NCBI RefSeq assembly: GCF_038003085.1
Contig: NZ_JBBOOM010000001.1
Span: forward strand, 1,302,001 to 1,366,000
Direction: 5' to 3'
From: Psychrobacillus sp. FSL K6-2836
Lineage (GTDB): Bacteria; Bacillota; Bacilli; Bacillales_A; Planococcaceae
Length of the DNA stretch: 64,000 nucleotides
This document shows, piece after piece, positions 21,285 through 52,400 of this stretch. Within the stretch, counting starts at the first letter, position 1; each line of letters begins with the position of its first letter. Made by a program: the position numbers and the translations under genes. The notes under the pieces were generated by a model. That model saw only the letters and a program-made list of their open reading frames with translations. It had not been told where the DNA came from and searched no databases.

Positions 21285-22435
21285 TTTGACCGGTACTTGC
21301 TCTCGCTTGTTGGATACTTGCTCTCCATGGGGGACGGTACTTGGGGTTTGATGGTGTTTACTTGCGGTTCTACTTGGGTTACTTGCGCTCGAGGGGGATT
21401 TACTTGCGAAACGGGGATTTATTCCATTTTTAAAGATCTAGGGAATAGGATTTCTATGTAATTAGCAATTTGACCGGTACTTGCTCTCGCTTGTTGGATA
21501 CTTGCTCTCGATGGGACGGTACTTGCGGTTTGGTCGGGTTTACTTGTGGTTCTACTTGGGTTACTTGCGCTCATAGGGATTTACTTGCGGAACGGGAATT
21601 TATTCCATTGTTAAAGATCTAGGGAAAAGGATTTCGATATAATTTGCAGTTTGACCGGTACTTGCTCTCGCTTGTTGGATACTTGCTCTCCATGGGTTGG
21701 TACTTGCGGTTTGATGGTGTTTACTTGCGGTTCTACTTGGGTTACTTGCGCTCGAGGGGGATTTACTTGCGGAACGAGAATTTATTACATTTTGTAATTA
21801 GCAATTTAACCGGTACTTGCTCTCCATGGGACGGTACTTGCGGTTTGGCGGTGTTTACTTGCGGTTCTACTTGGGTTACTTGCGCTCGATAGGGATTTAC
21901 TTGCGGAACGGGAATTTATTGCATTTTTAAAGATCTAGGGAAAAGGATTTCGATATAATTAGCAATTTGACCGGTAACTTGCTCTCGATTGTTGGATACT
22001 TGCTCTCGATGTGGTTGTATTTGCGGTTTGGTGGTGTTTACTTGCGGTTCTACTTGGGTTACTTGCGCTCGAGGGGGATTTACTTGCGGAACGGGAATTT
22101 ATTCCATTTTTAAAGATCTGGGAAAAAGGATTTCGATATAATTAGCAATTAGACCGGTACTTGCTCTCGGTTGTTGGATACTTGCTCTCGATGGGCTTGT
22201 ACTTGCGGTTTGGCGGTGTTTACTTGCGGTTCTTCTTGGGTTACTTGCGCTCGATAGGGATTTACTTGCGGTATGGGAATTTAAACCATTTTTAATGATC
22301 TGGGAAAAAGGATTTCGATATAATTAGCAATTTGGCCGTTATTTGCGCTCGCTTGTTGGATACTTGCTCTCCATGGGTTGGTACTTGCGGTTTGGTGGTG
22401 TTTACTTGCGGAACGGGAATTTATTCCATTTTTAT
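21285..22435. repeat. Seven-copy tandem array of a ~182-bp unit built from 21-bp TACTTGC repeats
   Basis: Units begin near 21294, 21478, 21659, 21814, 21975, 22158 and 22340 (spacing 184, 181, 155, 161, 183 and 182). A full unit has six sub-repeats, each TACTTGC plus 14 variable bases, followed by a ~55-bp spacer containing GGGAATTTATTCCA, AAAGATCTAGGGAAAAGG and TTCGATATAATTAGCAATTT. Sub-repeat starts in the first unit are 21294, 21315, 21338, 21359, 21380 and 21401, so the spacing is 21 (one is 23). Copies 3 and 4 have lost part of a unit and the last is truncated. No convincing gene lies inside. A single further copy stands at 52269. Confidence 0.9.
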
Positions 22436-22445
22436 TATTAAAAGT

Positions 22446-22486
22446 TTAACTCTCCTCCCGTCCAATCGGACAGAAGGAGAGTTTTT
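22446..22486. terminator. Bidirectional terminator beside the first subtilase gene
   Basis: Stem AACTCTCCT / AGGAGAGTT enclosing a second small stem GTCC-AATC-GGAC. T-runs lie on the plus side (TTTTTT) and, more weakly, on the minus side. It follows the subtilase stop at 22494. Confidence 0.75.
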
Positions 22487-22493
22487 TAGTTCA

Positions 22494-25400
22494 TTATTTT
22501 AAGCCACCCATAAAGTTTGTGAAGATTTTTGCAGCTTGAGCACGAGTTGTTGGATTTGATGGGTTAAATTTACCGTCAGATCCATCTACTACTTGTAGCT
22601 CATATAGCATAGAGATTGCATTGATCGTTTCTTCGTCATAGGCAGCGATATCTGAGAATGGTGCTATTTTAGTAGCCGTGTACTTTTTGCCTGTTTTGAA
22701 TGCATATGCGCGTTCAATCATTAATGCAAGCTGTGCACGCGTTACTTTTTCAGAAGGCTTAAATTTACCATTATCTCCTTTGATAATGCCGTATTTATAG
22801 CCTGCAGCAATTTCTGATTTTGTTTCAGCTGCATAATTAGTGATATCTTCAAACGGTGCTACTTCTTGTGTTTCTAATTTTAATGCACGAACGATTAATG
22901 AAGCCGCTTGAGCACGTGTTAGAGATTGCTCTGGTCTGAATGAGCCATCTGGGTATCCTTTCATATAGCCAAATTGTGCAGCTTTTTGGATATAATCTGC
23001 TGCCCAATGTTTAGCAGGTACGTCTGTAAATATAATTGGTGCTGGCGTTGGTGTCACTGGTGGTGTAGGTTTTACTGGATCTGGTTTAGTTGGACTTGGA
23101 TTCGATGTGCCTGGGTTAGATGGGCCAGAGCCTCCACCACCATCTCCACCTCCAGGATTTCCTGGGTTTGTTGGTGGATTTGTAACTGTAACGTTTACAG
23201 TTTTTTCATTGTCACCATATTTTACAGTAATAGTTGTTTGACCTGCTGCTTTAGCAGTAACTAAACCTTCTGTTACAGTAACCACTTTTGGATCCGCTAC
23301 TGTATACGTAGCTTCTTTTGTTACATCCTTAACTGTGTCTGACTCGAATGTACCGTAGCTTGGCGGACCGTCTGTAATGTTGTTATTATACGGAACTGGC
23401 TCGATAGCTGGTGCTGAATTTTCATATGGTGATACAAGTGTTAGTTTAGAAAGTTCTTTTGACTCAAAAGAAGCAATACTTACAGTTTTAGCCGAATTAA
23501 GCACCGGTTCTGCTGGATCTTCAGGTACTACAGGTTCTTCTGGCGTTGTTGGTTCTTCAGGAGCTACTGGCTCTTCTGGTGTTGTTCCTTCTTCAGGAGC
23601 TGTTGGTTCTTCTGGTGTTGTTCCTTCTTCAGGTGCTACTGGTTCTTCTGTTTTTGCTGGTTCAGTTTGTAGGGCAAAACCTTCAATAACTTGCTCCCCT
23701 TTGTTACCAGCTGCATCTTCAATAATTACTTTTACTGATTCTGTTTCAGCTGTCACTGGGAATGAGAAGCTTCCATCTTGATTCAGATTAAAGTCAACTG
23801 CTGCTGTTTCTTCACCAGCTACTGTAGCAACATACGAAGCATTTAATTTTTCATTCAGATCGTACTCTAAACCATATAAATATAATTCTTCATTATAATC
23901 GATATATTTGTCTGTTACTTGACCTGTTACTGTTCCTTCAGCTACTGATCCAGTAATTTCAGGGTCAGTAGTTTTCACGATAATTGGTCCCACATAGTCA
24001 CCTATGACACCTGTAGTAGCCAAACCAGTGAAGTCAATCGTATATAAACCATCTGGAATCGTTGTTGCCGGCGCTCCGCTCCAAGGTTGGTACTCACCAT
24101 CAACTGGTAGCCTCCAAGACCCTGCTCCTAGTGAAGTCCCTGCATGTAAATATCCGATGTAGCCATCCCCGTATTCTCCACCTTCAGGGTCCATGATGTC
24201 CCAAACCTCGATATAGTTTGTTGTAACTGGGCCTGTCAATGTGAATGTCAACTCTGCTATGTCTTGCACACCGTCACCATCAAACGACAAGTCTGTTTCT
24301 GTGATTGCCATATCTTTGATTGCCGTTACAGTAGGTCCACCAAAGTCTGCAGCGAATGGCAATGAAATTTCTGTGTATTCACTTTCTACTGGTGTTGTTG
24401 TTTCTGTTACATTCAGTTGAAGTTTGTCTCCTGTCTTCATGTTCAATTCTGTTTTGTCTACAGAAAGGGAGGTTTCAGTTTTAGTTCCTTCTGCTGAAGT
24501 AATGTGAATATAACCTAGAATTTCATCGCCTGCTTTTGCAGCAGTATTTTTGGACGCAGTCAACGTCACTGTTAACAATTCTTCTCCAGCTAATGTAAAG
24601 GTAGGTTTATCAACAGTTACAGTCGCGTCGCTAAATCCTTTTGTAACATCTACTGTTACGTTATAATCTCCACCGATACCTTTAATATCTTTGACTAGTA
24701 TTTCCTTTGTAACTGTAATATCTTTCTCTAAAGATTGTGGACCAAATGTAACAGTCCCTTTTAAGTTTTCAACAATTTCACCACTTGAGTCTAGCACAGC
24801 TTCGTCAACTGCATATGCAAGCGCTGCAGGATAAGCTGCCGCATATGCATCTACACGACCAGCACCTTGTGCGAATACATCGTATTTTGCTGTATTCAAG
24901 ACTTTTGCTGTATTAGAAAGGGCTACCTTTACGTCAAATGCATTCCAATCTGGATTTGCTTGTTTGACAAGTGCTGCGATACCAGCAATATGTGGTGTTG
25001 CCATTGATGTTCCAGTTTTGCGATCAAATGCTTCATCGTAAACAACTTCTGGGAAATCTGCTTTGTACATTGGAATGGTAGACATAATATTCGTTCCAGG
25101 TGCACTTACATCTGGTTTAATGTCAAAGTTTGGAGTAGATGGGCCACGTGAACTTGAATCGTTTACATCATCGCCAAGCGTTTTTGCGGAGTCAAAATTA
25201 CCAAAAGTAACTTTTCCTTCTCCACCATTTAACGCTGCACGAATTGCATCGCCATCTGTTTGGGACATATCATAGGTTGGAATAAATGCAAAGGAATCCC
25301 CTAAGAATGTTCCAGATGCGTTCGGTGCATTCGTACCGCCTGCAAAGTTATGGATAATTGCTGCTACTGCTCCATTTTCTTTGGCATATGCAATTTTATC

Positions 25401-26846
25401 AACAAATGCAATACTACCACGTGAGATCAATGCAACTTTACCGTCTACATCAATGCCTTGGTAATCTTTTGCTTCACCGTTTCCAGGAACGGCTACTAAG
25501 TCAAACTCTCCTTGAAGTTGTGTTGCTAAGTCTTTACCGAAAGTAGACCCCATTAGTTGAAGTTGTTTCGTCAAGTTGTAGTCTCCAACAGTAACTTTTA
25601 CTTCTCCGTTATACATCGTTTCTGGATTTGTTGTGTTACCAACTGCAATCCCTAAACGAGCTGTACCTGGAGTACCCATCGTTCCGCGATTAGGACCATC
25701 ATTACCAGTGGCAATAACCCCGATTGTACCAGCAATCATTGCATTATTAATCGCAAATGATCCCGCATCAGTTTCTGAGTTAGCCCCTCCACCAAGTGAT
25801 AGGTTGATAACATCCATTCCCTCAATTACAGCTGTGTCAATTGCTTTCACAATGCCTGAACTAGATCCACTGCCGTATGCGCCAAGTACACGGTAAGCGT
25901 ATAGGTCTACTTTTGGAGCAATCCCTTTAATACCATATTCATTCGCTCCGATTGCAGCGATTGTTCCCGCTACATGCGTACCGTGTGATGTATAGAACGC
26001 ACTTCCAGTAGTAGGATGAAATTCAGCTGTCCCCTCTGGTCGTTCTACAGGTGAAGTTTCAGATGCATCATCATCTGCACGAGTTCTCGTATAAGTGGAC
26101 GAGTTCGGGATGAAGTTCTTTCCACCTTTATAAATTCCTGCAAATTCAGGGTGATCTGCATCGATACCTGTATCAAGTACCGCTACTTTAACCCCTTGTC
26201 CTTCAATTCCTTCATTCCAAAGCTTTTCGATTCCTAGAAAAGAAATACTAGTATTCATCGCTGCATCAACTGTTGTGTCATTTTCAACTGGTTCTAATGA
26301 GCTTGAATCTTCCATTGCATACACAGTTGTGTCTGGCTCAACCAATGTAACGCCATTGACATTAAGTAGCTTAACAAGATCACTAGCTTTTATGTTAGCT
26401 GCAAATCCGTTTAATACTGTGTCATACGAGAAAATTTCTTTATAAGAAATCATATTATTGTTCATCTCTTTTTTTACAGATGCCTGCTGTGAAATTACTT
26501 TCGCTTTCACGGCACTTGCCTCTGATTTCGAGAAACTTTTGCCCGCTAACTCTCTTATACCTTTTTCAAGTGCAACAGGTTTTTCCGAAAGATGAACGAT
26601 TACCGCTACTTCTTCATCCCCAGTTAATCCTTGTAAATCTTTGTGAAGTGTTGGACCATTATTTGTCAGACTAAGTTGTTCAGCGATAGCCGCTTTCATT
26701 GCTAATGTGCTTTCGCTTGGCTCCTGTGATTTGAATGGTGTCTTATCCGTGTTAGCAAACGCACTTGTTGGAGCTAATAGTGCAAAGACCATCATAAAGA
26801 TTAGAAACGCACTAAAGGCTTTGTTAAACATTTTTTTCTTCTTCAT
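22494..26846 (-). CDS. SLH-anchored subtilisin-like serine protease (Vpr-like, S8)
   Basis: 1450 residues. Signal peptide (1-31), I9-type inhibitor propeptide (about 75-178), then the S8 catalytic domain with Asp225 (VAVLDTGIDADHPEF), His288 (SHGTHVAGTIAA), oxyanion Asn382 (ATGNDGP) and Ser614 (GTSMATPHIAGIAAL). A protease-associated (PA) domain is inserted at about 435-545 (VALISRGSIAFVDKIAYAKE). Beyond the catalytic domain come beta-sandwich domains, a Glu/Pro/Thr repeat stalk (about 1070-1110), a Big_2-like Ig domain (ADPKVVTVTEGLVTAKAAG), a Gly/Pro linker and three C-terminal SLH domains (about 1270-1450; LTRAQAASLI, VTRAQLALMI, TTRAQAAKIF). It should be a wall-bound extracellular protease. 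Its SLH block is closely similar to that of the GDSL enzyme at 50480. All catalytic residues are present. Confidence 0.95.
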   Translation of the reverse strand: MKKKKMFNKAFSAFLIFMMVFALLAPTSAFANTDKTPFKSQEPSESTLAMKAAIAEQLSLTNNGPTLHKDLQGLTGDEEVAVIVHLSEKPVALEKGIRELAGKSFSKSEASAVKAKVISQQASVKKEMNNNMISYKEIFSYDTVLNGFAANIKASDLVKLLNVNGVTLVEPDTTVYAMEDSSSLEPVENDTTVDAAMNTSISFLGIEKLWNEGIEGQGVKVAVLDTGIDADHPEFAGIYKGGKNFIPNSSTYTRTRADDDASETSPVERPEGTAEFHPTTGSAFYTSHGTHVAGTIAAIGANEYGIKGIAPKVDLYAYRVLGAYGSGSSSGIVKAIDTAVIEGMDVINLSLGGGANSETDAGSFAINNAMIAGTIGVIATGNDGPNRGTMGTPGTARLGIAVGNTTNPETMYNGEVKVTVGDYNLTKQLQLMGSTFGKDLATQLQGEFDLVAVPGNGEAKDYQGIDVDGKVALISRGSIAFVDKIAYAKENGAVAAIIHNFAGGTNAPNASGTFLGDSFAFIPTYDMSQTDGDAIRAALNGGEGKVTFGNFDSAKTLGDDVNDSSSRGPSTPNFDIKPDVSAPGTNIMSTIPMYKADFPEVVYDEAFDRKTGTSMATPHIAGIAALVKQANPDWNAFDVKVALSNTAKVLNTAKYDVFAQGAGRVDAYAAAYPAALAYAVDEAVLDSSGEIVENLKGTVTFGPQSLEKDITVTKEILVKDIKGIGGDYNVTVDVTKGFSDATVTVDKPTFTLAGEELLTVTLTASKNTAAKAGDEILGYIHITSAEGTKTETSLSVDKTELNMKTGDKLQLNVTETTTPVESEYTEISLPFAADFGGPTVTAIKDMAITETDLSFDGDGVQDIAELTFTLTGPVTTNYIEVWDIMDPEGGEYGDGYIGYLHAGTSLGAGSWRLPVDGEYQPWSGAPATTIPDGLYTIDFTGLATTGVIGDYVGPIIVKTTDPEITGSVAEGTVTGQVTDKYIDYNEELYLYGLEYDLNEKLNASYVATVAGEETAAVDFNLNQDGSFSFPVTAETESVKVIIEDAAGNKGEQVIEGFALQTEPAKTEEPVAPEEGTTPEEPTAPEEGTTPEEPVAPEEPTTPEEPVVPEDPAEPVLNSAKTVSIASFESKELSKLTLVSPYENSAPAIEPVPYNNNITDGPPSYGTFESDTVKDVTKEATYTVADPKVVTVTEGLVTAKAAGQTTITVKYGDNEKTVNVTVTNPPTNPGNPGGGDGGGGSGPSNPGTSNPSPTKPDPVKPTPPVTPTPAPIIFTDVPAKHWAADYIQKAAQFGYMKGYPDGSFRPEQSLTRAQAASLIVRALKLETQEVAPFEDITNYAAETKSEIAAGYKYGIIKGDNGKFKPSEKVTRAQLALMIERAYAFKTGKKYTATKIAPFSDIAAYDEETINAISMLYELQVVDGSDGKFNPSNPTTRAQAAKIFTNFMGGLK

Positions 26847-27108
26847 TAGATTTCCCCCTGTTCAGCAAATTTGTGCAAAATCATTTCTGCATGGTTATTC
26901 AAGACCGCATCCTTTCTACATGTATCATTAGGATTTTTGTTAAAGCATCTGTTTCACCGATGTTTAACGTGATACTCATACATTGTATGAATAGATGGGC
27001 CATGCTATGAAAAAATTAAGTGATTGATATTTTGGGTGGGGGATTGGTTTGGTTGAGTTCTGGGGGTTGGGGTTCTGGGGGTAACTTTCGTATGCGATGG
27101 TGGGGCTC
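26847..27108. other. Upstream region of the first subtilase gene
   Basis: Ribosome site CAGGGGGAAAT before the ATG at 26846, then AT-rich promoter-like DNA and a G-rich stretch (GGGGGTTGGGGTTCTGGGGG near 27059-27080) that leads into the CTCTCGT array. A similar GAGTTCTGGGGATGGGG stretch (about 40622) borders the array at 40645, so the flank is shared. No gene seen. Confidence 0.5.
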
Positions 27109-27262
27109 TCGTATAGAGGACAATCTCTCTCGTATGGGCGTTGATCTCTCTCGTTAGCGGGGTGGTCTCTCGTATAGGGGCGAATCGCTCTCATATGAGT
27201 GGTAATCTCTCTCGTTCGGGGTGTGTTCCCTCGTAATAGCCTGATCTCTCTCATACAGAAAG
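27109..27262. repeat. 21-bp CTCTCGT array, copy 1
   Basis: About eight units of CTCTCGTATAG/CTCTCGTTCG followed by a G-rich tail, spaced mostly 21 bp. It lies between the terminator of the second subtilase gene and the promoter of the first. Because 21 is a multiple of three, a 92-codon minus-strand frame is open through it (RERD/YERD-like residues), which I do not regard as a gene. Confidence 0.85.
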
Positions 27263-27280
27263 GATGACAGGTACATATAA

Positions 27281-27314
27281 AAAGTCCTGCAGAGAGGACT
27301 CTCTACAGGACTTT
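27281..27314 (-). terminator. Terminator of the second subtilase gene
   Basis: Minus-strand stem AAAGTCCTGTAGAGAG / CTCTCTGCAGGACTTT with a tiny loop and T-run, 14 nt after the stop at 27328. Confidence 0.92.
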
Positions 27315-27327
27315 AATTTAGCTGTTA

Positions 27328-30300
27328 TTAAAAGTTTTCTAATAGGAAGTAAAGCATTTTAGAAGCTTGTGCACGTGTTGCATTTTCTAGTGGTGCAAAA
27401 ATTTGTTTGCCATTCACTTCTTTCCCACTGATAATGCCAAGCTCTGCTGCTAAAGCAACATTTTCTTTTGCATAGTCTCCGATAGAAACTTCATCCGCAA
27501 ATTTGACTTTACCGGTTGCTGCTTTTAATGCCGAATCATCGTTGTATTTGATAGCACGGACAATCATGGTAGCCATTTGTTGACGTGTGATTTTTTCATT
27601 TGGATTAAATTTACCCTCACTGCCTACGATAATGCCTGCACGGTTTGCTGCTTCGATTTCGTATACACTCCAAGTCATATCTTCTGTTACATCAGAGAAA
27701 ATCCCTTGGTATTCTTCTTTAGGAAGGTTTAGTGAACGAGTTAACAATAAAGCAAATTGCGCTCGAGTAATTTGATCGTTCGGTGCGAAAGTATCTTCCG
27801 TTTTCCCATTAATGATCGTTTTAGAAGCAAGGGACTCAATATAGTCTATTGCCCATGAGTTTTCTAGATCTTTAAATGTTTTATTGTTTTCTACTACTAC
27901 AAATTTCGAGAAGTGATTTGTTTTGAATGTCACTTTTCCATTTGCGTATTTACTGCCTACGTACTCTAAAGTATTCGTTGTTTCATTCACATAGTATGCC
28001 GCAACTTTATCTGCATTTTTTACTGCAGATGCATTCACAGGCAATGAAACCTCAATAGGTTTCGAGAATGTAGATACTGTAGATGTTTTACCATCTTTTT
28101 CTACCGTGATTTCGAAATCATATACAGATGATACAGTTGTTCCGTTACCAGGAACTTTTGCATCTTTGTCTAGGTTGATAGCGAAGTTTGTTTTGCCGTT
28201 ACCATTTTTAGAGATTTCTTTTAATACTTCAGTTGGTACAGTTAAACTTGTTTCTCCAGCTTTAAGCGAGAAAGACTTACCTGAGTCTGCAATTGCCTTC
28301 AAAGCTATTGCAGAAACTTCTGCCTTAACTTTTGGCTTATCTGCTGTAGGCGCAGGAACAGTTACTTCCACACTAGTAGTCTTCGTATCTTTTACTTGCT
28401 CGTCCACTTTTTTGTCGTCCACTACTACATTACCAGGATCTGCTGGTGCTGTTGTAGGTGGTGTACCACCACCATTACCAGGATTAGATGTGCCTGGGTT
28501 TCCACCTCCAGGATTACCTGGATTGCTTCCACCGTTTCCTGGTTCTTCTACTACAACATCAGACTTGTTAATCGTAATAGTTTCAGTTGTTTTATGACCG
28601 ACTAAATCTTCTACTTCAAATGTAAATTCGTTGTTGCCATCAACAAGGGCAAGATCTACTTCAATTTCCTTACTAAAGCCATCCATTTTGTAAGGTTCAG
28701 AAAGTGCTTGAGCAAATCTCTCATCACCATTCACATATAGACTAATTTCATCAAAATTATCTTCTACTGTAACATTTACTTTTACTGTTTCCGATTTGGT
28801 ATTTTTCGGATAATTATTTTTAACTTGTACTCTTGGTACTTGTGTGTCTACAAAGATTTTACGTGTAATCTGCATTGGGTTTTGGAACTCATCTACTGCA
28901 GCTACTGAAATATCTTGTACTCCATCTTCTAATGTTAAAGTATGCGTAAAGTTAACTCCATCAAACTCCGCTTCTTCCCCGTTAACTGTTACAGAAAGGA
29001 TTTTTGAAGCGTCATCTACACGTCCAGTTACTACTATTTCATTGTTATCGAAAGCATCAAAGAATTCAGGAGTGTCGATAAAGATTACTGGATGTTCTGT
29101 TTCTTCTTCACTATCAACTTGGAAAGGAATATCTGTAAAGTTTCCGGCAGCATCCCAAACTCTTACTGTTCCAATATCTTTGTTAGTTATGGAATCTATC
29201 AGTATTTCGCTATCATCGACAGATAGTTCATCTGCTACAACTTCTCCATTAACTAAAACTTGCCAATAATCCGCTCCTGTGCCTACTTCGTTATCTATAA
29301 AGTTAGCAATTGAAACTGTGTTTGTTTCTTCTACAAAAGTTACTTCAGCTGTTGGTGCTACTGTATCAACTTTCACTGGGAATTGAATTGATTGCCATTC
29401 AGCCCCTTCAAAGTCAATGACACCACTTAGTTGGATAAAGTAATCCCCATCAGCAGCAGCCTTGTTATTTATTTTCCCATCCCAACCGTAGCTCGTATTA
29501 TATGTGAAGGGATTAGTAGTAGCGCTAGATATATAATGCTTTGTTAAATCTTTTGAAGTTTTAATAGTGCGTAGCTTATTTCCTCCGCTATCTAATACTT
29601 CAACTTTAAATCCTTTTGCGTTACGGAATAGAGAGAATACGGGAATTGCTTTGTCTCGTACTCCGTCACCGTTTGGAGAGAATCCAAATCGGGAAGTATC
29701 AAAATCCCCACCACCATCAATGAAATTCCCTTGCTCATCTGCTAGTGCAGAGTAACCCCAATAAGTCATTGGATCCCAAGCAAAGTAATCAAAGATAGGT
29801 GCATCATCCCATTCACCGTTAAATCCAAAGAATGGTACTGTAAGTGGAACGTTTCCTGTTACATCTTCTTCTGAATCAGTAAGTGTTACGAAACCATCCA
29901 CGAAGAACCCGTTCGTATAAATCGAATTAAACATTTCAGCCATAAATGTAACGTCAACTGAAACAGAAATGTCAGCTGTACCATTAGCCGGAATAGTTAC
30001 ACTTTCTGGGGCTATAATCTCTACCTCTTCCTCTTCTTTCAAAACAAACTGACCATCATTATTAGGATCGTTTACAAATAAACCTCCTCCTGCAGGAGCA
30101 GGTACGTCCATTTGAACTTGTGTATTTACATTGTATGTTTTCTCCTCATCAGAGAAGTTTTTAGCCTTTAATGTAAATGTGAATTTATTATCCTTAATTT
30201 CTTTTAGGGCAACTTTAGCTTCTCCAGTTGTTGTTTCGGTTACAACTACATCCGTGTTCAGTGCGTTCGCAAGTTGCATAAGTCCAGAACCTTGTCGTCT

Positions 30301-40644: not shown

Positions 40645-40915
40645 GTGGGGTGGTCTCTCGTATGGGGGGCATGCTCTCTCGTATAGAGGTGGATTGCTCT
40701 CGTATCAAGGGCTATCTCTCTCGTTCAAGAGATGCTCTCTCGCATAGAGGTGGATCGCTCTCGTATAGGTGGTGATCTCTCTCGTATGGGGGGCAAGCTC
40801 TCTCGTTCAGGAAATGTTCTCTCGGATAGAGGCGGATCACTCTCGTATGCTGGGGTATCTCTCTCGTTCAGGAGATGCTCTCGTATAGAGGAGGATCGCT
40901 CTCGTATAGAGCTGC
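40645..40915. repeat. 21-bp CTCTCGT array, copy 2
   Basis: About thirteen units. Most CTCTCGT starts are 21 bp apart; the TTCAGGA/TTCAAGA-type units are 17-19 bp. Unit types recur in the order TATAGAGG, TATGGGGG or TATGCTGG, TTCAGGA, so there is a higher-order period of three to four units. Many units contain CTCTCGTATAGAG, a small inverted repeat (CTCT/AGAG). The 70-codon plus-strand frame across it is a shadow of the 21-bp period. Confidence 0.88.
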
Positions 40916-40925
40916 GGATCCATAT

Positions 40926-42897: not shown

Positions 42898-43122
42898 CTC
42901 TCGACGTCTCGGCTTTCGTATGCTGGGGTGGCTCTCTCGTATAGAAGTAGATCTCTCTCGTATGAGCGGTGACCTCTCTCGCATAGAGGCGGAGCTCTCT
43001 CGTATGAGTGGCAAACTCTCTCGTTCGGGAGATTCTCTCTCGTATAGAAGTAGATTGCTCTCGTATGAGCGGCGATCTCTCTCATATAGAGGTGGATCGC
43101 TCTCGTATAGAAAGTGTGGCGG
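42898..43122. repeat. 21-bp CTCTCGT array, copy 3
   Basis: About eleven units with the same CTCTCGTATAG(A/G)(A/G)G and CTCTCGTATGAGCGG types as copies 1 and 2, spacing mostly 21 (one TTCGGGAGATT-type unit is 19). It lies in the gap between the divergent SLH gene at 40965 and the GtrII-like gene. Its right end (GTATAGAAAGTGTGGCGGGTAC) matches the right end of copy 1 (CATACAGAAAGGATGACAGG) and runs into a dead SLH gene end. Frames across it (84-89 codons on either strand) are not regarded as genes. Confidence 0.88.
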
Positions 43123-43131
43123 GTACTTTTA

Positions 43132-43231
43132 TTAAGTTTCTAATAGGAAGTAAAGTATTTTGGAAGCTGATGCGCTTGTTGCATTTGCTTGAGGTGCAAA
43201 AACTTGTTGATTTCCATTCAATACGTCCATT
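43132..43231 (-). pseudogene. Dead 3' end of an SLH-domain gene
   Basis: On the minus strand it encodes NGNQQVFAPQANATSASASK followed by ILYFLLET and a stop. This aligns closely with the last residues of the living subtilase at 27328 (NGKQIFAPLENATRAQASKMLYFLLENF in two parts). No start and no upstream coding frame remain; the DNA beyond 43231 is the promoter region of the plus-strand operon. The terminator found after the living gene is missing here. Confidence 0.8.
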
Positions 43232-43264
43232 TCCCTACTCGACTACTTTTCAACTGTGTAGCTA

Positions 43265-43273
43265 TGCTATAAT
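43265..43273 (+). promoter_or_regulatory. Extended -10 promoter of the GtrII-gtaB-acyltransferase operon
   Basis: TATGCTATAAT at 43263-43273: perfect -10 with the upstream TG. It predicts a start near 43280, about 28 nt before the ATG at 43309. No strong -35 box is seen. Confidence 0.5.
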
Positions 43274-43308
43274 TTGAAGGGATTAATATGATTAAAAGGA
43301 GTACATAT

Positions 43309-44832: not shown

Positions 44833-44846
44833 AGGACGTGGATTCA

Positions 44847-45725: not shown

Positions 45726-45758
45726 TCTCTTTTTGTGAGCAAGATAAGGAGTATTTAA

Positions 45759-46799
45759 ATGGCTAAGAAACGCATTTTTTATATGGATTATGTAAGGGCT
45801 ATCGCAATTATTGGTGTTTTGGTAATCCATACAGCTGCACCATATGCAACAATGTACAACAAAGTCGACTTTTGGGTTTGGGAGTCTAGTATTATTTATA
45901 ACTCGCTAGTTCGATGGTGTGTTCCATTATTCTTAATGGTAAGTGGGGCTTTACTATTAGGTAGAAAAGAAGAATCCTTGACCGATTTCTTTACTAAACG
46001 GGCAAACAGGATTATTGTCCCTTTCCTGTTTTGGTCTGTTTTCTACTTTGCATGGAGGCACTTCCATTACGGCGCTGAACTTTCTATTACAAAGATGATC
46101 TCTCAAATGCTGAACAATGGTACGTATTATCATCTTTGGTATTTTGCCGCTTTGATCGGGATTTATTTATTAGTTCCTATTTTTAATGTATTTGTGAATC
46201 ATGCATCTCGTACTTTAGTAGGATACCTCGTACTTTTGTGGATAGTCGTATATGGAGGATTCCGCTATTATTCGTTTATCGTTATCAATGAAGTCAGTAC
46301 TTATTTCCCATTAACGGAGTTTATCGGCATGTTTTTAATGGGCTATTACTTTTCTAAATTCGAACAACCTTTAAAAGCACGAATCATTATTTATCTACTA
46401 GGTATCATTGGTGGAATTGGCACTATTTTACGAACAAACTCTTTCGCACACGATCAAGGAGGCTTTTCTAGCTACGCCTTTTCGTACTCCAGTCCAGGAG
46501 TCATCGCCATGTCGATTGCATTGTTTGTTTTCATCAAATATGCCATCACACGTTGGAGTGAAAAAAATACTGATTTTCAAACCGGTAAGGTTATTAAACT
46601 CATCTCTGCAACAAGCTTCGGCATTTATTTGGTGCATCCGGTGATATTGGATTTGGTAAGACCTTACTTTCACGAAGGATTGGACATATACATCCACCCA
46701 GTTATAGGGATTCCGTTGCAGACCTTTATATTATTAGTGATTTCTGTAATTATTAGTTGGGTTATTGGTAAGATTCCTGTGTTGAATAGAACTATATGA
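45759..46799 (+). CDS. Acyltransferase 3 family membrane protein (O-acetyltransferase type)
   Basis: 346 residues with about ten membrane helices. The family signature near the start is RIFYMDYVRAIAIIGVLVIH, with the conserved Arg and His of acyltransferase 3 proteins, followed by RWCVPLFLMVSGALLLGRKE and FFTKRANRIIVPFLFWSVFY. The C-terminal LISATSFGIYLVHPVILDLV is also typical. Such proteins transfer acetyl or other acyl groups to extracellular sugars (OafA, PatA/WecH-like). It has AAGGAG before the ATG and lies 33 nt after gtaB, the last gene of the operon. A likely role is O-acylation of the glycan made by this operon; the true acceptor is unknown. Confidence 0.88.
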   Translation: MAKKRIFYMDYVRAIAIIGVLVIHTAAPYATMYNKVDFWVWESSIIYNSLVRWCVPLFLMVSGALLLGRKEESLTDFFTKRANRIIVPFLFWSVFYFAWRHFHYGAELSITKMISQMLNNGTYYHLWYFAALIGIYLLVPIFNVFVNHASRTLVGYLVLLWIVVYGGFRYYSFIVINEVSTYFPLTEFIGMFLMGYYFSKFEQPLKARIIIYLLGIIGGIGTILRTNSFAHDQGGFSSYAFSYSSPGVIAMSIALFVFIKYAITRWSEKNTDFQTGKVIKLISATSFGIYLVHPVILDLVRPYFHEGLDIYIHPVIGIPLQTFILLVISVIISWVIGKIPVLNRTI

Positions 46800-46809
46800 G
46801 ATTTTGGGG

Positions 46810-46845
46810 AAAGTGAGCGGTTTGTGCTCGCTTTTCTTTTTTTTG
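46810..46845 (+). terminator. Terminator of the gtaB operon
   Basis: Stem GAGCG / CGCTC-type (AAAGTGAGCG ... CTCGCTTTT) followed by CTTTTTTTTG, just after the acyltransferase stop. Confidence 0.8.
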
Positions 46846-46851
46846 TTTGAG

Positions 46852-47175
46852 TTATGTGGTGGTTCGATTGGGTTGTGTGGTGGTTGATCTGATTTATGTG
46901 GTAGTTAGAGAGATTTATGTGGTGGTTGGCTTAATTTATGTGGTAGTTTAACTGGTTTATGTGGTGGCTTCTCTTTTGTGTGGTGGTTGGATGCGGTTAT
47001 GTGGTGGTTAACTTGGTTTATGTGGTGGTTAGTTGAATTTATGTGGTAGCTTCTCTTTTGTGTGGTGGTTGAACTGGTTTATGTGGTAGCTGGAGAGATT
47101 TATATGGTGGTTAGTTGAATTTATAGGGTGGCTACTCGGTTGTGTGGTTGATGGATGTCGGTATGTGGTGGCTAT
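46852..47175. repeat. 21-bp TTATGTGGTGGTT array, copy 1
   Basis: About sixteen units of TTATGTGGTGGTT or TTGTGTGGTGGTT plus eight variable bases, each mostly 21 bp; the units ending in GGCTTCTCTT are 19 bp and one is 22. It fills the gap between the convergent gtaB operon and the S-layer gene. The plus strand is G/T-rich and almost free of C in the conserved part. No gene seen in 46800-47222. Confidence 0.9.
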
Positions 47176-47190
47176 ATTTCAAGCACACAA

Positions 47191-47219
47191 AAAAGTCCTC
47201 TCAGGTGAGAGGACTTTTT
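47191..47219 (-). terminator. Terminator of the S-layer protein gene
   Basis: Perfect stem AAAAAGTCCTCTCA / TGAGAGGACTTTTT with a 2-nt loop, directly after the stop at 47223; works on either strand. Confidence 0.92.
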
Positions 47220-47222
47220 GTT

Positions 47223-50177
47223 TTATTGGCCTACGATTACTTGTGTTGTTAAGATGTTGCCGTCTACGATGTAGGTTAGGTAGAATGTGTCGCCTTTTTC
47301 TACATCTTTGAATGTTAGTGTATTGGTTCCATTGCCTGTTACTGTTGGTGCTGTATTGTCCGCGTCTGCGTTAACTAGGTTGGTTGCTGTTAGTTTGATA
47401 CGGCTTGCTGCTGTTTTGGAAATATCTTCTCCGTATTGATCGGTGATTTTCAATACTGCTCTTAAATCGGCTGAAGCGATATTTACGGTTGCTGTTGTTG
47501 CTGGTACTTGTAAGCCTTGGTCAACAATTTTCAGGCCATTGGTTGGCTGGAGCTCAATGCTGCTTGCAAGTGGCTCTGACTTGGTCACGATAATCTCTTG
47601 GTCGAGCGTTACTGGCTGACGATCAGCATTTACAATTACTTTTACTGGAACAGTTTTATCTTCTTTATCTACAATATCTTTTGTTCCTCGAACGGATAGT
47701 TTTCCGTTTAATACATTATAAATGAGATCATTATGCCCAGTGATTACGGTATATTCTGCTTTTGGTACAACTAGTCTATTGCCATCTGATGTGATTCCGT
47801 AAACAATCAATTCTGTAGCATAGTTTTCTACTGATAGATTCGATGGGTTATCGTAAATTTGTGCAATAGGTTTCATTTCATAGGAAACGATACTTGCTTT
47901 ATCGATTACTCGTAGATTCATGTCAAATGCACTAGATTCTATGACCTGAGCGATACCTTTTGCATCTACTTTTTGTAAAGTCAGCTTGATCGCATCTGCA
48001 CCTTTTTTATTGCCCGTTACTGTTACTTCGTTTTTAGTTGAAATTACTTTGTTTGTTGAAATTTTCACTTTGTCATCCATTGCATCTACTTTAACTAAGT
48101 ATTTACCTGCGTTTGCTGTTGTTTCAGCTGTTGCTAGGTTTGAATCAGTCAATTTGAATTCTCTATCATACTGATCTAGCACAATAATTGACTCTTTGTT
48201 TAATGTAAATGCCCCGCCAACTAGTAGATTTGTTTCTAAGTCTTTTGTTGCTACAATCTGTTTTGCTTCTGCTTTCGCTTTAACTGTAACGAGAAGTGTT
48301 TCTGACCTTTTCGTTGCTGTTGTAGCGGATATTAGTACTTGACGATCTTTTGTTGATTTTGAGGAATCGGTTAATACTAATTTTGCTTTGCCCGTCAATG
48401 GATCGCTTTCAATCGTTGCCTTAACATTCGCATCATTTGTTGTTACAGTCACGCCATTTGGCTTATTTAAAGTTACTGCGCTTGTAATTTCATTGCCATC
48501 AATTCCTCGTATTTGGAAAGGAACTTCTGTCTTCTCATCTGCAACGACTAGATTTGGAGTATTGAGTGAAATCGTATCAGCTTTCACACCCTCTGCAACT
48601 ACCACTTCAAATTTAGCCGTTTTCCCGGTAGATTTTGAAGTAATTGAAATAGTTGCTTTACCAGTTTTCTTCGTTTTCGGCTGTTTTAGCTCAAGAACAG
48701 TCTGTTTTTGGCCATCTATTATCAATTGTGAAAAAGTAGGTAAGGTTACGCTTTTGTTCACATCAACGATCGATGAATCTGAAATCGAAACGGTAACGTC
48801 TTTTGCGATATCCTGGAATGGCACTTCAAGGCCATATTGATCGATTGCCTTTAAGACTAAATGAAAGTCTTCGTATGTTGCATCAGGATCTAGAGTCGCA
48901 CTAGGATCCAAATCGTTATACACATTTTTAATGCTCACTTCAGCTACTTTTGATAGTTCAGAAACGCGAACGGTTTTGGATTCTGAGATGGAAGTCTTTG
49001 TATCCAATAAAGTAACCGAAATTTTATCCCCTAGCTTAAAATTAGAGGATGCTGCAGCTTTCGTGATTTCTATAACACCTTCAGTTGGCTTTACAGTAAT
49101 GTCACTACCTGCTCCTGTTACATCTGTGTTTCCTACTAAATTATGACTTTGAGATGTCATATCTTCTCCGTATTGGTTTTCTACTTTATATGGAATACGT
49201 ACTTTATTTCCCGAAACATTTGGGATTGCAGCAGTCGTTGGAAACTTAATAGCAGTCACTATTTCATCCGTTACAGTTGTCGATTTCGATAGGTTTGTCT
49301 CTTGGGCTGCAGTTACAGAAATATCATACGTTCCTGCTGTTAATCTATCAGATAATAAAATCTTCGCTGATTTTTTATCTTTTGAAAATTCCATACTAGT
49401 AATCGCTACATCTGTAGTACCTTTTTTAACTGCAATTTTAGCAGAAGAATCTACTACTTTATTGAAATTTACCGTTAATGCAAAGGCGCCAGTAGCCTCA
49501 AATTTTGTTATTTCTACAGGCTTTGATTCAATGACTCTTTGAAGAAATGTCGCAAACTGACCGCGAGTAGTTGTGCTTTTAGGGTTAAATTTATCTAAAG
49601 CAGGATTTGTAATATCAAAATAATCAAGTACAGCGATATATGGACGTGCAGTCTCTTTGGCGTTCGCCAAATCTTTCACATCAGCTTTAAATGTTTCTTT
49701 TGCTACATAATCTTCTAAGTTAGTATCTTCTCCGATATTCATCAGACGAACCAAAGCAATAGCCATATCTTCTCGTGTCATTTTTTGTTGAGCTAAAAGT
49801 TTATCTTCAGTTCCCCAAAATACTCCGTTATCCTTGATCAAGGCTGCATATTTTAAAAGTTCATCATTATCTTTATTTAAAGCTATATCTGAAAAACGTG
49901 ATTTTGTCTTATAGTTGTCCGGTACTACAAAGCCTTCTGCCACTAAGTATTTGCCGATTAGTTTCACTACGTCGGAGCGTATCAATGTTTTATTTGGCTT
50001 GAACGAACCATCAGGATAGCCCGTGATAACACCAGCTTCCACCAATGCTAAAATCGCTTGTTCATGTGTGTTGCCGGTTGTATCTGAGAAACTTGCTGCA
50101 AAAGCCGTTGGTGCAATAGCTGTTGCTACTAAAGATATAGCTACAGAACTCGTTAGAAACTTATTTTGTTTTTTCAT
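47223..50177 (-). CDS. Probable S-layer protein with N-terminal SLH domains
   Basis: 984 residues. A signal peptide ends at AFAA (about 28). Three SLH domains follow (about 29-220): VITGYPDGSFKPNKTLIRSDVVKLI, then FWGTEDKLLAQQKMTREDMA, then KFNPKSTTTRGQFATFL. The long remainder is a chain of Ig-like beta-sandwich repeats, beginning with a Big-type domain (VEITKFEATGAFALTVNFNKVVDSS) and marked by repeated DQYG/NQYGED motifs (VENQYGEDMTS, AIDQYGLEVPF, VLDQYDREF, ITDQYGEDIS). No enzyme motif is visible and lysine content is high. Size, layout and composition match main S-layer proteins of Lysinibacillus-like bacteria, but expression cannot be judged and it could be a minor S-layer-like protein. 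AAGGGGG precedes the ATG. Confidence 0.85.
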   Translation of the reverse strand: MKKQNKFLTSSVAISLVATAIAPTAFAASFSDTTGNTHEQAILALVEAGVITGYPDGSFKPNKTLIRSDVVKLIGKYLVAEGFVVPDNYKTKSRFSDIALNKDNDELLKYAALIKDNGVFWGTEDKLLAQQKMTREDMAIALVRLMNIGEDTNLEDYVAKETFKADVKDLANAKETARPYIAVLDYFDITNPALDKFNPKSTTTRGQFATFLQRVIESKPVEITKFEATGAFALTVNFNKVVDSSAKIAVKKGTTDVAITSMEFSKDKKSAKILLSDRLTAGTYDISVTAAQETNLSKSTTVTDEIVTAIKFPTTAAIPNVSGNKVRIPYKVENQYGEDMTSQSHNLVGNTDVTGAGSDITVKPTEGVIEITKAAASSNFKLGDKISVTLLDTKTSISESKTVRVSELSKVAEVSIKNVYNDLDPSATLDPDATYEDFHLVLKAIDQYGLEVPFQDIAKDVTVSISDSSIVDVNKSVTLPTFSQLIIDGQKQTVLELKQPKTKKTGKATISITSKSTGKTAKFEVVVAEGVKADTISLNTPNLVVADEKTEVPFQIRGIDGNEITSAVTLNKPNGVTVTTNDANVKATIESDPLTGKAKLVLTDSSKSTKDRQVLISATTATKRSETLLVTVKAKAEAKQIVATKDLETNLLVGGAFTLNKESIIVLDQYDREFKLTDSNLATAETTANAGKYLVKVDAMDDKVKISTNKVISTKNEVTVTGNKKGADAIKLTLQKVDAKGIAQVIESSAFDMNLRVIDKASIVSYEMKPIAQIYDNPSNLSVENYATELIVYGITSDGNRLVVPKAEYTVITGHNDLIYNVLNGKLSVRGTKDIVDKEDKTVPVKVIVNADRQPVTLDQEIIVTKSEPLASSIELQPTNGLKIVDQGLQVPATTATVNIASADLRAVLKITDQYGEDISKTAASRIKLTATNLVNADADNTAPTVTGNGTNTLTFKDVEKGDTFYLTYIVDGNILTTQVIVGQ

Positions 50178-50308
50178 ATATGAATTTCCCCCTTTTTAAT
50201 GGTCATTACCGCATAAATTAGACGATATATACTGTTAATAGTTTCCCCTACTCCTAGTATATAACAATTTAGGTTGGATTGGGGTTCTATTTTGGGAAGT
50301 GTTGTGGG

Positions 50309-50403
50309 TTATGTGGTGGATATGATTGGTTATGTGGTGGTTGCCTGGTCTTATGTGGTGATTGGTACTGGTTATGTGGTGGTTGACCTGGCTTTTGTGG
50401 CAG
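50309..50403. repeat. 21-bp TTATGTGGTGG array, copy 2
   Basis: Four full units at 21-bp spacing (starts about 50309, 50330, 50351 and 50372) and a partial fifth (TTTTGTGGCAG). It lies upstream of the S-layer gene and downstream of the GDSL gene terminator. The TTATGTGGTGG core is the same as in the array at 46852, so the two copies flank the S-layer gene on both sides. Confidence 0.88.
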
Positions 50404-50436
50404 ACACCACTTGAAAGGGAAAGCCTTAACTAAAAG

Positions 50437-50466
50437 AAGCGGCTGATTGTCAACTATCAGCCGCTT
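50437..50466 (-). terminator. Terminator of the GDSL hydrolase gene
   Basis: Minus-strand stem AAGCGGCTGAT / ATCAGCCGCTT with an 8-nt loop, then CTTTTAG. Confidence 0.85.
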
Positions 50467-50479
50467 TGGTAAGTCTATT

Positions 50480-52111
50480 TTATTTTAAATATGTTAGTGA
50501 ATTGATTAGGATTTTAGCTGCTTGGCCGCGCTTTGCTGTGTCTTCTGGCATGAATTTGCCGCCCGAACCACTTACAATTTTGAATGTAGCTAGCATGGAT
50601 ATAGCAGCTTTTGTTTCATCGTCGTAGTGGGCAATATCCGAAAATGGTGCTGGAGTTGCTGCAGTATATGGATTTCCTGTAACGGATTCCACTGTTCGTT
50701 TCAGCATAAGTGCCAGCTGCGCACGTGTGATATATTCGGTTGGACGAAACTTCCCGTCGCTTCCTTTAATAATGCCATATTGATAAGCAGCTGCAATTTC
50801 TGCTTGTGTTTCTGCAGCGTAAATTTCAATATCTTCGAATGGTGCAGTCTTATCTGTTTTTAGTTTTAATGCATTTACGATAATTGAAGCTGCTTGTGCA
50901 CGTGTAATTTTATGTTCTGGTTTAAATGTACCATCTGGATAACCCTTTACTACTCCAGCAGCAACGGCTTGTGTAATATAATCCTTTGCCCAGTGTTGTT
51001 GGATATCTGGGAAAATTACAGGTGTTACTCCAGTAGTAATTGCAGCAGTCGGGTTAACTACACTCGCATTGCCCGAAGCATCTACAGCTACAACTGTAAA
51101 CGTATATGCTTTATTTTCTTCTAGATTTCCTATTTCATATTTGAGTATATTCCCTGTTACTTGCCCTACTACTTCTTTCCCATTATAGATTGCGTAACCA
51201 GCTACTCCTGTATTATCGGTAGCAGGCTTCCATGTCAATGTTGCAGTTGTTTTGTTGGAGACTACTGCAGTTAGCGTATCCTTTGAAACCCATGGATAGT
51301 TCTCTACTAGTTTTTGATTAAATAAGTCCGAAACTACCTTATAGCCTGCTTCACTTAAATGGATATTCTTTGGATTTGGTAGGTTAGCTGCATAATTTTC
51401 TGCTATTTTTTCAGCAGTTGGGATGAAGGCTGCAGTTGTTCCAGTCAATCCAGTTTTAATTGCTCCATTTAGCCCATCCATCAACTGAGCAATCTGAGTT
51501 TGGTACGTCGCATCCATTTGTGGGAATGGATTATAATAGCCCATTACATATACTTGAACATCTGGATTAATCATATAGATAGTTTTTAATATTTGGCTAT
51601 AATTAACGCCAACTTGTTGGATAGAAGCCATGATTTTTGCTAAATCCACAGTTGGAACACCAGTAGCAGCATCTACTTTAAAGTATGGTAGTACATCATT
51701 TGCTCCGGCACTAATAGTGATAATATCTGCAGCTGCGATAGACTTATGCAGCTCAGCTGTATCGCCTTGATTGCCAGTTCCAAAAACAGGTTTGGTTGCA
51801 TTTGCTTGAAGATCCTTTAAAATATCCGTGGTCGTATAACCTGGTAAACTAAAACCTTTGTTGAATGAGTTTAAAACATTTTGAGATTGCAAAGCTTCTG
51901 CGATGAAATCTGTATATCCGCTTCCCAGCTTACTATCTGGAGTAACACCAGTAGCTAACGAATCTCCAAGCGCTAAATAATTTACCGGAGTAACCCAAGT
52001 CGGCGCCTCTGTATCCGTTTCAGCTGCAAATGAAAGTCCTGGAATGGCTACTAGCTGTAGTACAAGTGCAAATACAAACAATAAGCTGAGTTTCTTCATT
52101 GCTTTTTTCAA
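50480..52111 (-). CDS. SLH-anchored SGNH/GDSL hydrolase
   Basis: 543 residues. Signal peptide (1-30). SGNH hydrolase domain (about 42-265) with the block I nucleophile Ser51 (YLALGDSLATG), block III Asn138 (ITISAGANDV) and block V His251 (PKNIHLSEAGYKVV). The Asp expected three residues before the His is Lys248, so catalysis may use a Ser-His dyad or an Asp placed elsewhere. A fibronectin type III domain follows (about 278-365; ATLTWKPATDNTGVAGYAIY), then three SLH domains (about 368-543; ITRAQAASII, ITRAQLALML, AKRGQAAKIL). It should be a wall-bound esterase, perhaps acting on acylated glycans or lipids. The TTG start has GGAGG 7 nt upstream; an ATG four codons later is possible. Confidence 0.9.
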   Translation of the reverse strand: MKKAMKKLSLLFVFALVLQLVAIPGLSFAAETDTEAPTWVTPVNYLALGDSLATGVTPDSKLGSGYTDFIAEALQSQNVLNSFNKGFSLPGYTTTDILKDLQANATKPVFGTGNQGDTAELHKSIAAADIITISAGANDVLPYFKVDAATGVPTVDLAKIMASIQQVGVNYSQILKTIYMINPDVQVYVMGYYNPFPQMDATYQTQIAQLMDGLNGAIKTGLTGTTAAFIPTAEKIAENYAANLPNPKNIHLSEAGYKVVSDLFNQKLVENYPWVSKDTLTAVVSNKTTATLTWKPATDNTGVAGYAIYNGKEVVGQVTGNILKYEIGNLEENKAYTFTVVAVDASGNASVVNPTAAITTGVTPVIFPDIQQHWAKDYITQAVAAGVVKGYPDGTFKPEHKITRAQAASIIVNALKLKTDKTAPFEDIEIYAAETQAEIAAAYQYGIIKGSDGKFRPTEYITRAQLALMLKRTVESVTGNPYTAATPAPFSDIAHYDDETKAAISMLATFKIVSGSGGKFMPEDTAKRGQAAKILINSLTYLK

Positions 52112-52268
52112 TTCTCTTCCTCCCTTTTCCTAACTATCCTACAAATAATTATATTCTAGTTTAGGGGTTTATTATCCTCTATCCTTTCCTATGAAAATCT
52201 CCCTGGGTAATACAGAGAACTAATACTAATATAATGAGTGCATATTGTTTATTTTACTCACAACACGA
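52112..52268. other. Promoter region of the GDSL hydrolase gene
   Basis: AT-rich upstream DNA of the GDSL gene, no gene seen. It leads into the single TACTTGC unit at 52269. Confidence 0.4.
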
Positions 52269-52400
52269 TACTTGCGTTCACCTGGTGGATACTTGCTCAT
52301 GATGGTGTGGTACTTGCTGTATGGTGGTGTTTACTTGCTGTTCTGATTAGGTTACTTGCGCTCAGTGGAGATTTACTTGCAGAACGGGAATTTATTCCAC
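52269..52400. repeat. Single TACTTGC unit, six sub-repeats at exact 21-bp spacing
   Basis: TACTTGC begins at 52269, 52290, 52311, 52332, 52353 and 52374: six sub-repeats with five intervals of exactly 21 bp. It ends in GAACGGGAATTTATTCCA like the units of the tandem array at 21285, about 30 kb away. It lies between the biofilm operon terminator and the GDSL gene promoter. Confidence 0.9.

What the first reader, a model, noticed from the sequence alone, without database searches (positions are those of the whole stretch)
21285..52400. Three unrelated repeat families share one 21-bp intergenic period
Arrays of TACTTGC (21285, 52269), CTCTCGT (27109, 40645, 42898) and TTATGTGGTGG (46852, 50309) have different sequences, yet in each the dominant spacing is 21 bp, counted directly (for example 52269, 52290, 52311, 52332, 52353, 52374). 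Exceptions are mainly 17, 19, 22 or 23. B-DNA has about 10.5 bp per turn, so 21 bp places each motif on the same face of the helix. All arrays lie only between genes, next to surface-protein genes. This suggests arrays of phased binding sites (nucleoid protein, transcription barrier, or sequences favouring recombination among SLH genes), but the function is inference. The families may alternatively be selfish repeats copied by slippage.
Basis: partly seen in the sequence, partly recalled or inferred. Interest (0 to 1): 0.8.

Follow-up and report, generated by a model that had tools for sequence, protein, structure and literature searches.

The report
Helically phased intergenic repeat arrays
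Between the genes of this soil bacterium and its relatives lie many repeat arrays of different sequence that obey one spacing rule of about two DNA turns, which suggests they are docking rails for unknown DNA-binding proteins.

Summary
The window is from a Psychrobacillus genome (inferred). In an even sample of its chromosome (40 x 20 kb) identical 7-mers between genes pile up at 21 bp (25.6 per 10 kb; neighbouring lags about 2-5), not in genes. Three motif families explain it: A TTTACTTGC, B tCTCTCGTATAG, C TTATGTGGTGGTT. Sampled relatives carry further families with the same period. The exceptions are systematic: A mostly comes in six-unit blocks; B, C, E and H run 21,21,21,(21),19, so 29 long arrays keep phase at a median of 10.27 bp per turn. 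Between species the A core differs at 2.2% of sites, spacers at 20.3%, flanks at 11.0%: the core is constrained. For B and C this is not shown. The surface-gene link is local: elsewhere 2 of 40 scanned neighbours have SLH domains. No RNA fold. Best reading: rails of sites for head-to-tail binding proteins that coat or wrap intergenic DNA, renewed by unequal exchange. No binder is identified and no function is shown. Closest known: STAR elements and plasmid iterons; neither membership is met.

The parts
21285..22430 (+). Family A, seven successive blocks of mostly six TTACTTGC units at 21 bp, whole blocks repeated with a period of about 181 bp; most blocks end in a GGAATTTATTCC-like palindrome
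52268..52400 (+). Family A, a single six-unit block (5 x 21 bp) with the terminal GGGAATTTATTCC; the collinear site in G007 also has six units
27084..27254 (+). Family B array, 9 units, spacings 21 21 21 19 21 21 19 18
40654..40920 (+). Family B array, 13 units, spacings 21 21 21 19 21 21 21 19 21 21 17 21
42898..43120 (+). Family B array, 10 units, 21 x5, 19, 21 x3, between divergent genes
46852..47184 (+). Family C array, 16 units, 21 x5, 19, 21 x3, 19, 21 x3, 19, 21, between convergent genes and between two terminator-like hairpins; the collinear G007 site has 10 units with different spacers
50309..50400 (+). Family C array, 4 units at 21 bp; the collinear G007 site has 7 units

Best explanation
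Each array is a rail of binding sites for a sequence-specific DNA-binding protein that binds one 8-13 bp non-palindromic core per two helical turns and packs head to tail with its neighbour. Different motif families would be read by different, fast-changing binders with the same packing geometry. In long arrays a 19-bp step (or 18, 17, or 29, which is 19 plus about one turn) every 3-5 units resets the phase, so that the sites face one side at about 10.27 bp per turn. A repeat below the 10.5 of free DNA is what left-handed wrapping on a protein surface would give (nucleosomal DNA is about 10.2; recalled). The likely role is architectural: to coat or wrap intergenic DNA, more often between convergent genes and away from divergent promoters, as a boundary between transcription units. 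Unequal exchange expands and replaces the arrays while selection keeps core and spacing. Shown here: period, grammar, common phase, constraint of the A core, intergenic placement, turnover, no RNA fold above shuffles. Inferred: the protein, cooperative packing, wrapping, boundary role.
For: 21-bp peak between genes in an even 19% sample of the chromosome, not in coding DNA. Same period with different motifs in five sampled relatives. 29 arrays of four motif families from three species share a best helical repeat of 10.27 (interquartile 10.24-10.31), reached by 0 of 500 random-offset controls; shuffled order gives lower coherence in 500 of 500. Four-unit blocks close with 19 (39 of 50) or 29 (7 of 50), five-unit blocks with 18 (6 of 12) or 19 (5 of 12), the one ten-unit block with 17. 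A core 8 of 360 changes, spacer 119 of 585, flank 438 of 3985 (p 3e-18 and 2e-9). Units do not sit in folded RNA. Arrays avoid divergent gaps (5 of 59 against 80 of 354) and favour convergent ones (20 of 59 against 69 of 354; p about 0.014 and 0.017). Six-unit blocks in family A: 18 of 35 in G000, 38 of 50 in G008.
Against: No binding protein is identified and nothing was tested at the bench. Units inside an array are copies of one another, so the common phase may be partly inherited from few ancestral blocks; the two controls treat loci as independent. Blocks of one or two units that close with 19 or 18 (9 of 90 blocks) break the phase rule, and array L200 fits 10.04. For B and C the core is slower than the spacer (15% against 30%; 10% against 28%) but not slower than the flanks (10%; 8%), where unit matching is unsafe. 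In 7 of 29 collinear comparisons the relative has no array, so single arrays are dispensable. Orientation against replication is weak (40 against 22, p 0.03), as is orientation against the neighbour gene (41 of 59; 33 of 59 if flipped).
Confidence: 0.55

Rival explanations
1. Selfish or neutral minisatellites: short direct repeats expanded by slippage and unequal exchange between genes, where they do little harm; the shared 21 bp is inherited from an ancestral unit and the higher-order repeats are copying footprints.
For: Unit numbers differ and spacers turn over between species, families replace each other at one site, whole blocks are copied in tandem; higher-order repeats of 61-103 bp; arrays avoid divergent gaps as tolerated baggage would; A, B and D may share an ancestral motif.
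Against: A core substitution nine times below the spacers and five times below the flanks; the same period and 19-bp resets in motifs without resemblance (E, H); narrow common helical repeat.
Confidence: 0.2
2. Non-autonomous mobile elements (MITE-like): the A element of six units plus terminal palindrome, and perhaps the other arrays, are moved by a transposase that binds the repeated units.
For: Fixed block size and recurrent terminal motif in A (40 of 85 block ends, 839 of 12200 random positions); 7 of 29 collinear sites empty in the relative, one with a fairly clean indel of about 200 bp; some A flanks share longer sequence with one another.
Against: No target-site duplication or inverted ends recognised by eye; arrays of up to 37 units and 19-bp resets are not expected of transposon ends; no matching plasmid or phage element.
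Confidence: 0.12
3. Chromosomal decoys of plasmid or phage iterons: arrays titrate foreign replication initiators, each family matching a different replicon.
For: Geometry of iterons (direct repeats two turns apart, recalled); several motif families per genome and fast turnover.
Against: No array-like match in plasmids or phages (B array only); blastn is weak for arrays with variable spacers; in the viral pattern scans 8 of 185 loci pass a loose test and by eye none is a clear copy of these arrays.
Confidence: 0.05
4. RNA-level elements: terminators, processing sites or protein-binding tails in 3' untranslated regions.
For: Strand-specific cores and location beyond gene ends.
Against: Over 62 arrays mean folding z-scores lie between -0.79 and +0.45 by family and strand; no Rfam match on the arrays at gathering threshold; orientation against neighbours only weakly biased; helical phasing has no meaning in single-stranded RNA.
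Confidence: 0.05

Closest known systems
STAR elements of Staphylococcus (PMC3532100, passages read)
   Same: Clustered intergenic direct repeats of a short conserved motif with spacers that are distinct at each locus; unit number expands and contracts; function unknown.
   Different: One 14-bp GC-rich motif with spacers of at least 40 bp (tandem period about 50); no two-turn period, no resets, no several motif families under one rule (none mentioned in the passages seen).
Iterons of theta plasmids (recalled; PMC4980987 seen only in the listing)
   Same: Direct repeats of about 17-22 bp spaced near two helical turns, bound by initiator monomers on one face.
   Different: Here about a hundred dispersed chromosomal arrays per genome (estimated), beside ordinary genes, up to 37 units, with 19-bp resets; no rep gene or plasmid match found.
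TAACTGA heptamer repeats of Beggiatoaceae (PMC4679880, abstract and passages)
   Same: Abundant intergenic direct repeats of one heptamer, up to 43 copies, suspected binding sites.
   Different: Heptamers follow directly on each other, mostly just upstream of start codons in the BOGUAY genome; one motif.
Alpha-satellite-like higher-order repeats (recalled)
   Same: Diverged monomers arranged in 3-5 unit higher-order repeats, fast turnover, family replacement.
   Different: Far shorter, dispersed between genes of a bacterial chromosome; only a short core is conserved.
ParR-parC type centromeres with about 20-bp direct repeats (recalled)
   Same: Tandem sites two turns apart bound side by side, forming a superhelix.
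   Different: Plasmid-borne and single; partition genes beside the arrays were not looked for and did not appear among the neighbours scanned.

Membership tests
STAR elements | 14-bp motif T(G/A/T)TGTTG(G/T)GGCCC(C/A) | tested here: not met
   Cores found are TTTACTTGC, CTCTCGTATAG, TTATGTGGTGGTT; motif definition
STAR elements | At least 40 bp of spacer between motifs | tested here: not met
   Dominant unit spacing 21 bp in all three families
Iterons of a replication origin | Direct repeats spaced two helical turns | tested here: met
Iterons of a replication origin | Lie at an origin beside a rep gene | tested here: not met
   Dispersed over the chromosome; no initiator among the 40 neighbours scanned outside the window and 11 proteins scanned in it
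CRISPR arrays | Near-identical repeats with unique spacers of about 26-40 bp and cas genes | tested here: not met
   Spacers of 8-13 bp, often repeated in blocks; no Cas domain among the neighbours scanned
MITE or other transposable element | Terminal inverted repeats and target-site duplication | tested here: inconclusive
   Seven empty sites aligned; boundaries ragged, no duplication recognised by eye; terminal palindrome at one end of A
Head-to-tail protein-binding array | Sites on one helical face | tested here: met
   Common phase at 10.27 bp per turn in 29 arrays
Head-to-tail protein-binding array | Core under constraint relative to spacer | tested here: met
   Family A; for B and C inconclusive
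Head-to-tail protein-binding array | A protein that binds the core with a two-turn footprint | not testable with these tools
   Needs pull-down, footprinting or ChIP

The most novel reading that the evidence does not exclude
Psychrobacillus and some relatives carry a bacterial counterpart of satellite chromatin: on the order of a hundred dispersed intergenic arrays per genome, in several unrelated and quickly replaced motif families, held together only by a geometric code (six units at 21 bp, or blocks of 3-5 units closed by 19 bp, about 10.27 bp per turn) that positions fast-evolving, paralogous DNA-binding proteins into left-handed, nucleosome-like spools or filaments acting as boundaries between transcription units.
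Probability: 0.22. Interest if true: 0.88.

Novelty: new variant of a known kind. Interest (0 to 1): 0.7.

Why it matters
Clustered intergenic direct repeats are known (STAR, TAACTGA), but the cases I saw are one motif with no common geometry. Here motifs without resemblance in several species obey one spacing grammar precise enough to give a helical repeat, and in family A the core is clearly constrained. That makes an unexplained class of bacterial repeats testable: which protein reads the rails, and does it wrap DNA the way histones do? If so, it would be a sequence-programmed chromatin element in ordinary soil bacteria.

Tried and rejected
Surface-gene or SLH recombination: rejected as a general rule by the neighbour scan (40 of the 93 non-window neighbour proteins listed were scanned, 4 of them without a family at 1e-8; plus 11 window proteins).

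Structured RNA: rejected (first 260 nt of each of 62 arrays, both strands; 8 of 124 folds below z -2). Coding repeats: 21 is a multiple of 3, but 19, 18, 20 and 29 break the frame, and coding DNA at lag 21 is in the range of other multiples of three.

Plasmid or phage iterons: no array-like match (plasmids; phages, B array only). Viral pattern scans: of the 185 loci they left, 8 pass a loose test for repeated cores: L388, L423, L449, L470 and L482 look like coding repeats by eye, L406 is irregular, L494 and L509 are short C-like arrays.

Breadth: the B motif occurs in 2 of 398 genomes of the class sample, both Psychrobacillus; Neobacillus (20 pairs) and Lederbergia (6 pairs) carry a related form. 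Four other genera of the family were sampled with 60 kb each: G019 shows the 21 peak (24 pairs, median 1), G020, G023 and G024 do not; two further contigs were short (one masked) and two class members (20 and 18 kb) showed no 21 peak. Four 10-kb stretches of Neobacillus gave one lag-21 stretch, apparently coding.

Shared flank elements: some A flanks resemble each other, and one B and one C array are followed by the same dispersed repeat, but no flank common to all arrays was found.

Literature: the searches (listings; several show only the top 12-20 rows) returned no description of these arrays; three more searches failed by time-out, so absence from print is not established. DNA-binding tandem-repeat proteins (PMC11417379, passages) gave no link.
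Full report
OBSERVATION. They lie on one strand each and dominate the tandem-repeat listing of the window, with periods of 21, 40, 61, 82, 103 and 181. The organism is a Psychrobacillus: 16 of 26 named stretches with a paired B core are P. antarcticus, P. psychrotolerans, P. vulpis or Psychrobacillus sp. OK028; one each is Neobacillus and Lederbergia, and eight lie in unrelated bacteria, probably by chance. The genus is an inference from these hits.

GENOME-WIDE TEST. I took 40 evenly spaced 20-kb stretches of the 4.23-Mb chromosome (19%). With ORFs of 100 codons or more masked, identical 7-mer pairs between genes number 364 at distance 21 and 351 at 42, with 139 at 40, 121 at 61 and 170 at 63; other lags are mostly 10-50. 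Coding DNA has 226 at 21, in the range of other multiples of three (117-236). With 20 further stretches chosen for arrays, autocorrelation arrays number 124 at lag 21 against 2-15 at lags outside the series. The even sample holds 16 arrays in 9 of 40 stretches, 11 of the 16 in the 11 stretches between 0.95 and 2.03 Mb; scaled up this is of the order of 85 arrays per chromosome. GC skew puts the origin near 2.17 Mb and the terminus near 0.05 Mb, so the rich region lies on the arm towards the origin. Why it is rich is not explained.

FAMILIES. Three motifs account for the recurrent 21-bp heptamers in G000: A TTTACTTGC(tcT), B tCTCTCGTATAG, C TTATGTGGTGGTTag, with cores of 8-13 bp and a variable rest. 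In 19 Psychrobacillus genomes exact pairs of A number 234 in G008, 96 in G000, 41 in G006, 39 in G007 and 0-2 elsewhere; B 99 in G000, 49 in G006, 21 in G007, 7 in G004, 4 in G014 and 0-2 elsewhere; C 70 in G000, 22 in G007, 6 in G009, 4 in G010, 0-1 elsewhere; a further family D, TTGGTTGCTCTC, 17 in G013, 12 in G009, 6 in G016, 3 in G010, with 5 in the window's own A array. In held stretches of G008, G007, G010, G012 and G013 the top lag is 21; only the G012 stretches and part of the G010 ones were not picked at array hits, and the G012 peak (41 pairs) rests on few arrays; in G000 the super-period 82 tops that count. New motifs appear there: CTTTGGGGAACTC (E, G013), AATCGGTCGAATA (F, G010), TTTAGGTGACA (G) and ATTGTCGTAATCC (H) in G012. 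A, B and D share CTCTCG and may be one lineage; C, E, F, G and H do not resemble them by eye.

GRAMMAR. A comes mostly in six-unit blocks, 5 x 21 bp: 18 of 35 blocks in G000 and 38 of 50 in G008; 40 of these 85 blocks end in a short GG-AT-rich-CC motif, against 839 of 12200 random positions (tandem copies of whole blocks are counted singly, so the blocks are not all independent). The F array and several D blocks also have six units. B and C run 21,21,21,19 (82 bp), with 61-, 102- and 103-bp variants and one array of 21,21,21,29 (92 bp). E and H, of other sequence and other species, run 21 x4, 19. Taking unit starts as phases, 29 arrays of 8 or more units have a best helical repeat with median 10.27, interquartile 10.24-10.31, range 10.04-10.38 bp per turn; mean coherence at 10.5 is 0.32 for B and 0.29 for C, against 0.84 and 0.88 at their best values. 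Shuffling the order of spacings lowers the coherence (0.820 against 0.896; 0 of 500 reach it), and drawing other offsets widens the spread of best values from 0.07 to 0.55 (0 of 500 as narrow). Block length and closing step go together: four-unit blocks close with 19 (39 of 50) or 29 (7), five-unit blocks with 18 (6 of 12) or 19 (5), the one ten-unit block with 17; against this, 9 of 90 blocks have one or two units and close with 18 or 19. Units inside one array are related by duplication, so loci, not units, are the independent items.

EVOLUTION. G008 and G007 are collinear with G000 at about 86-92% identity over most of the regions compared. At the same gene gap unit number changes, families swap (L188:16387 is B in G000 and G007, mostly A with bits of B in G008; L191:17692 is B in G000, A in G008) and in 7 of 29 comparisons the relative has no array. 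For family A, units aligned one to one (9 of 14 comparisons, 45 units; the large window array left out because its copies are not independent) differ at 8 of 360 core, 119 of 585 spacer and 438 of 3985 flank positions; with it in, 13 of 496, 168 of 806 and 489 of 4439. The A cores are therefore maintained where they stand. For B and C, cores (15%, 10%) are slower than spacers (30%, 28%) but not slower than flanks (10%, 8%); units there are often matched to the wrong copy.

SURROUNDINGS. Of 59 arrays with both neighbours called, 20 lie between convergent, 34 between tandem and 5 between divergent genes, against 69, 205 and 80 of 354 background gaps over 100 bp (p 0.017 for convergent, 0.014 for divergent). 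Arrays often abut terminator-like hairpins (by eye; scan of one region). Neighbours outside the window are mixed: nucleoside diphosphate kinase, arginyl-tRNA synthetase, EPSP synthase, GatB, pyrimidine nucleoside phosphorylase, ketoacyl synthase III, a Clp-type ATPase, and in L196 two SLH proteins and two subtilases. Inside the window they are SLH subtilases, a 5'-nucleotidase, a GDSL lipase, glycosyl- and acyltransferases. A B array also lies on the 70-kb contig C4. No secondary structure above shuffles on either strand.

MECHANISM. Non-palindromic cores, one orientation per array, a two-turn period, phase-keeping resets and constrained A cores together fit monomers binding side by side on one face of DNA. 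A repeat of 10.27 rather than 10.5 would fit left-handed wrapping on a protein surface; it could also be inherited spacing. Placement beyond gene ends suggests a boundary role, but avoiding promoters is also what tolerated baggage would do. I put the rail model at 0.55 and the full satellite-chromatin reading at 0.22.

KNOWN THINGS. STAR elements are the nearest in genomic habit, iterons (recalled) the nearest in geometry, TAACTGA repeats in abundance. None that I saw has several motif families under one spacing grammar. In the searches that completed I found no report of these arrays; three others timed out.

Noticed in passing
window 21004-21087, minus strand: c-di-GMP-II riboswitch aptamer (78.6 bits, gathering 53.5), upstream of a minus-strand gene with histidine-kinase domains (18745-20427).
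   Followed up: no
L181:2512-, L182:6216-, L186:14757+, L254:18221-, L290:3598-, L332:6834+: A separate dispersed repeat ('...GTGGCGCTCTTAGCCTTTGTTCCTTT...', in three of them preceded by '...AACAGGATGTTGGTCACGAAGGCGTTG...' or near it), found in G000, G008 and G010; it directly follows a C array in L181 and a B array in L332.
   Followed up: partly
L323 (G036:C1, 17,720-bp contig): Strong repeat signal at lag 73 between genes of another class member (355 pairs); unrelated period, not examined.
   Followed up: no
window 7132-7325 and 59722-59929: Tandem repeats of 9 bp (21.6 copies) and 12 bp (17.3 copies), inside long minus-strand ORFs, probably coding repeats.
   Followed up: no
L494:6416-6487 and L509 around 930 (viral contigs): Short C-like arrays (TTATGTGG with about 20-21 bp spacing) on contigs classed as viral; chance or real kinship not tested.
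   Followed up: no
G000 chromosome 0.95-2.03 Mb: 11 of the 16 arrays of the even sample lie in 11 of 40 stretches here, on the arm towards the origin; cause unknown.
   Followed up: partly
L309:1981-2065, L309:4623-4709, L310:18145-18233 (G019): In another genus of the family a small dispersed element with about three GGGTAGAATAAAT units at 21 bp, several copies within 60 kb.
   Followed up: no
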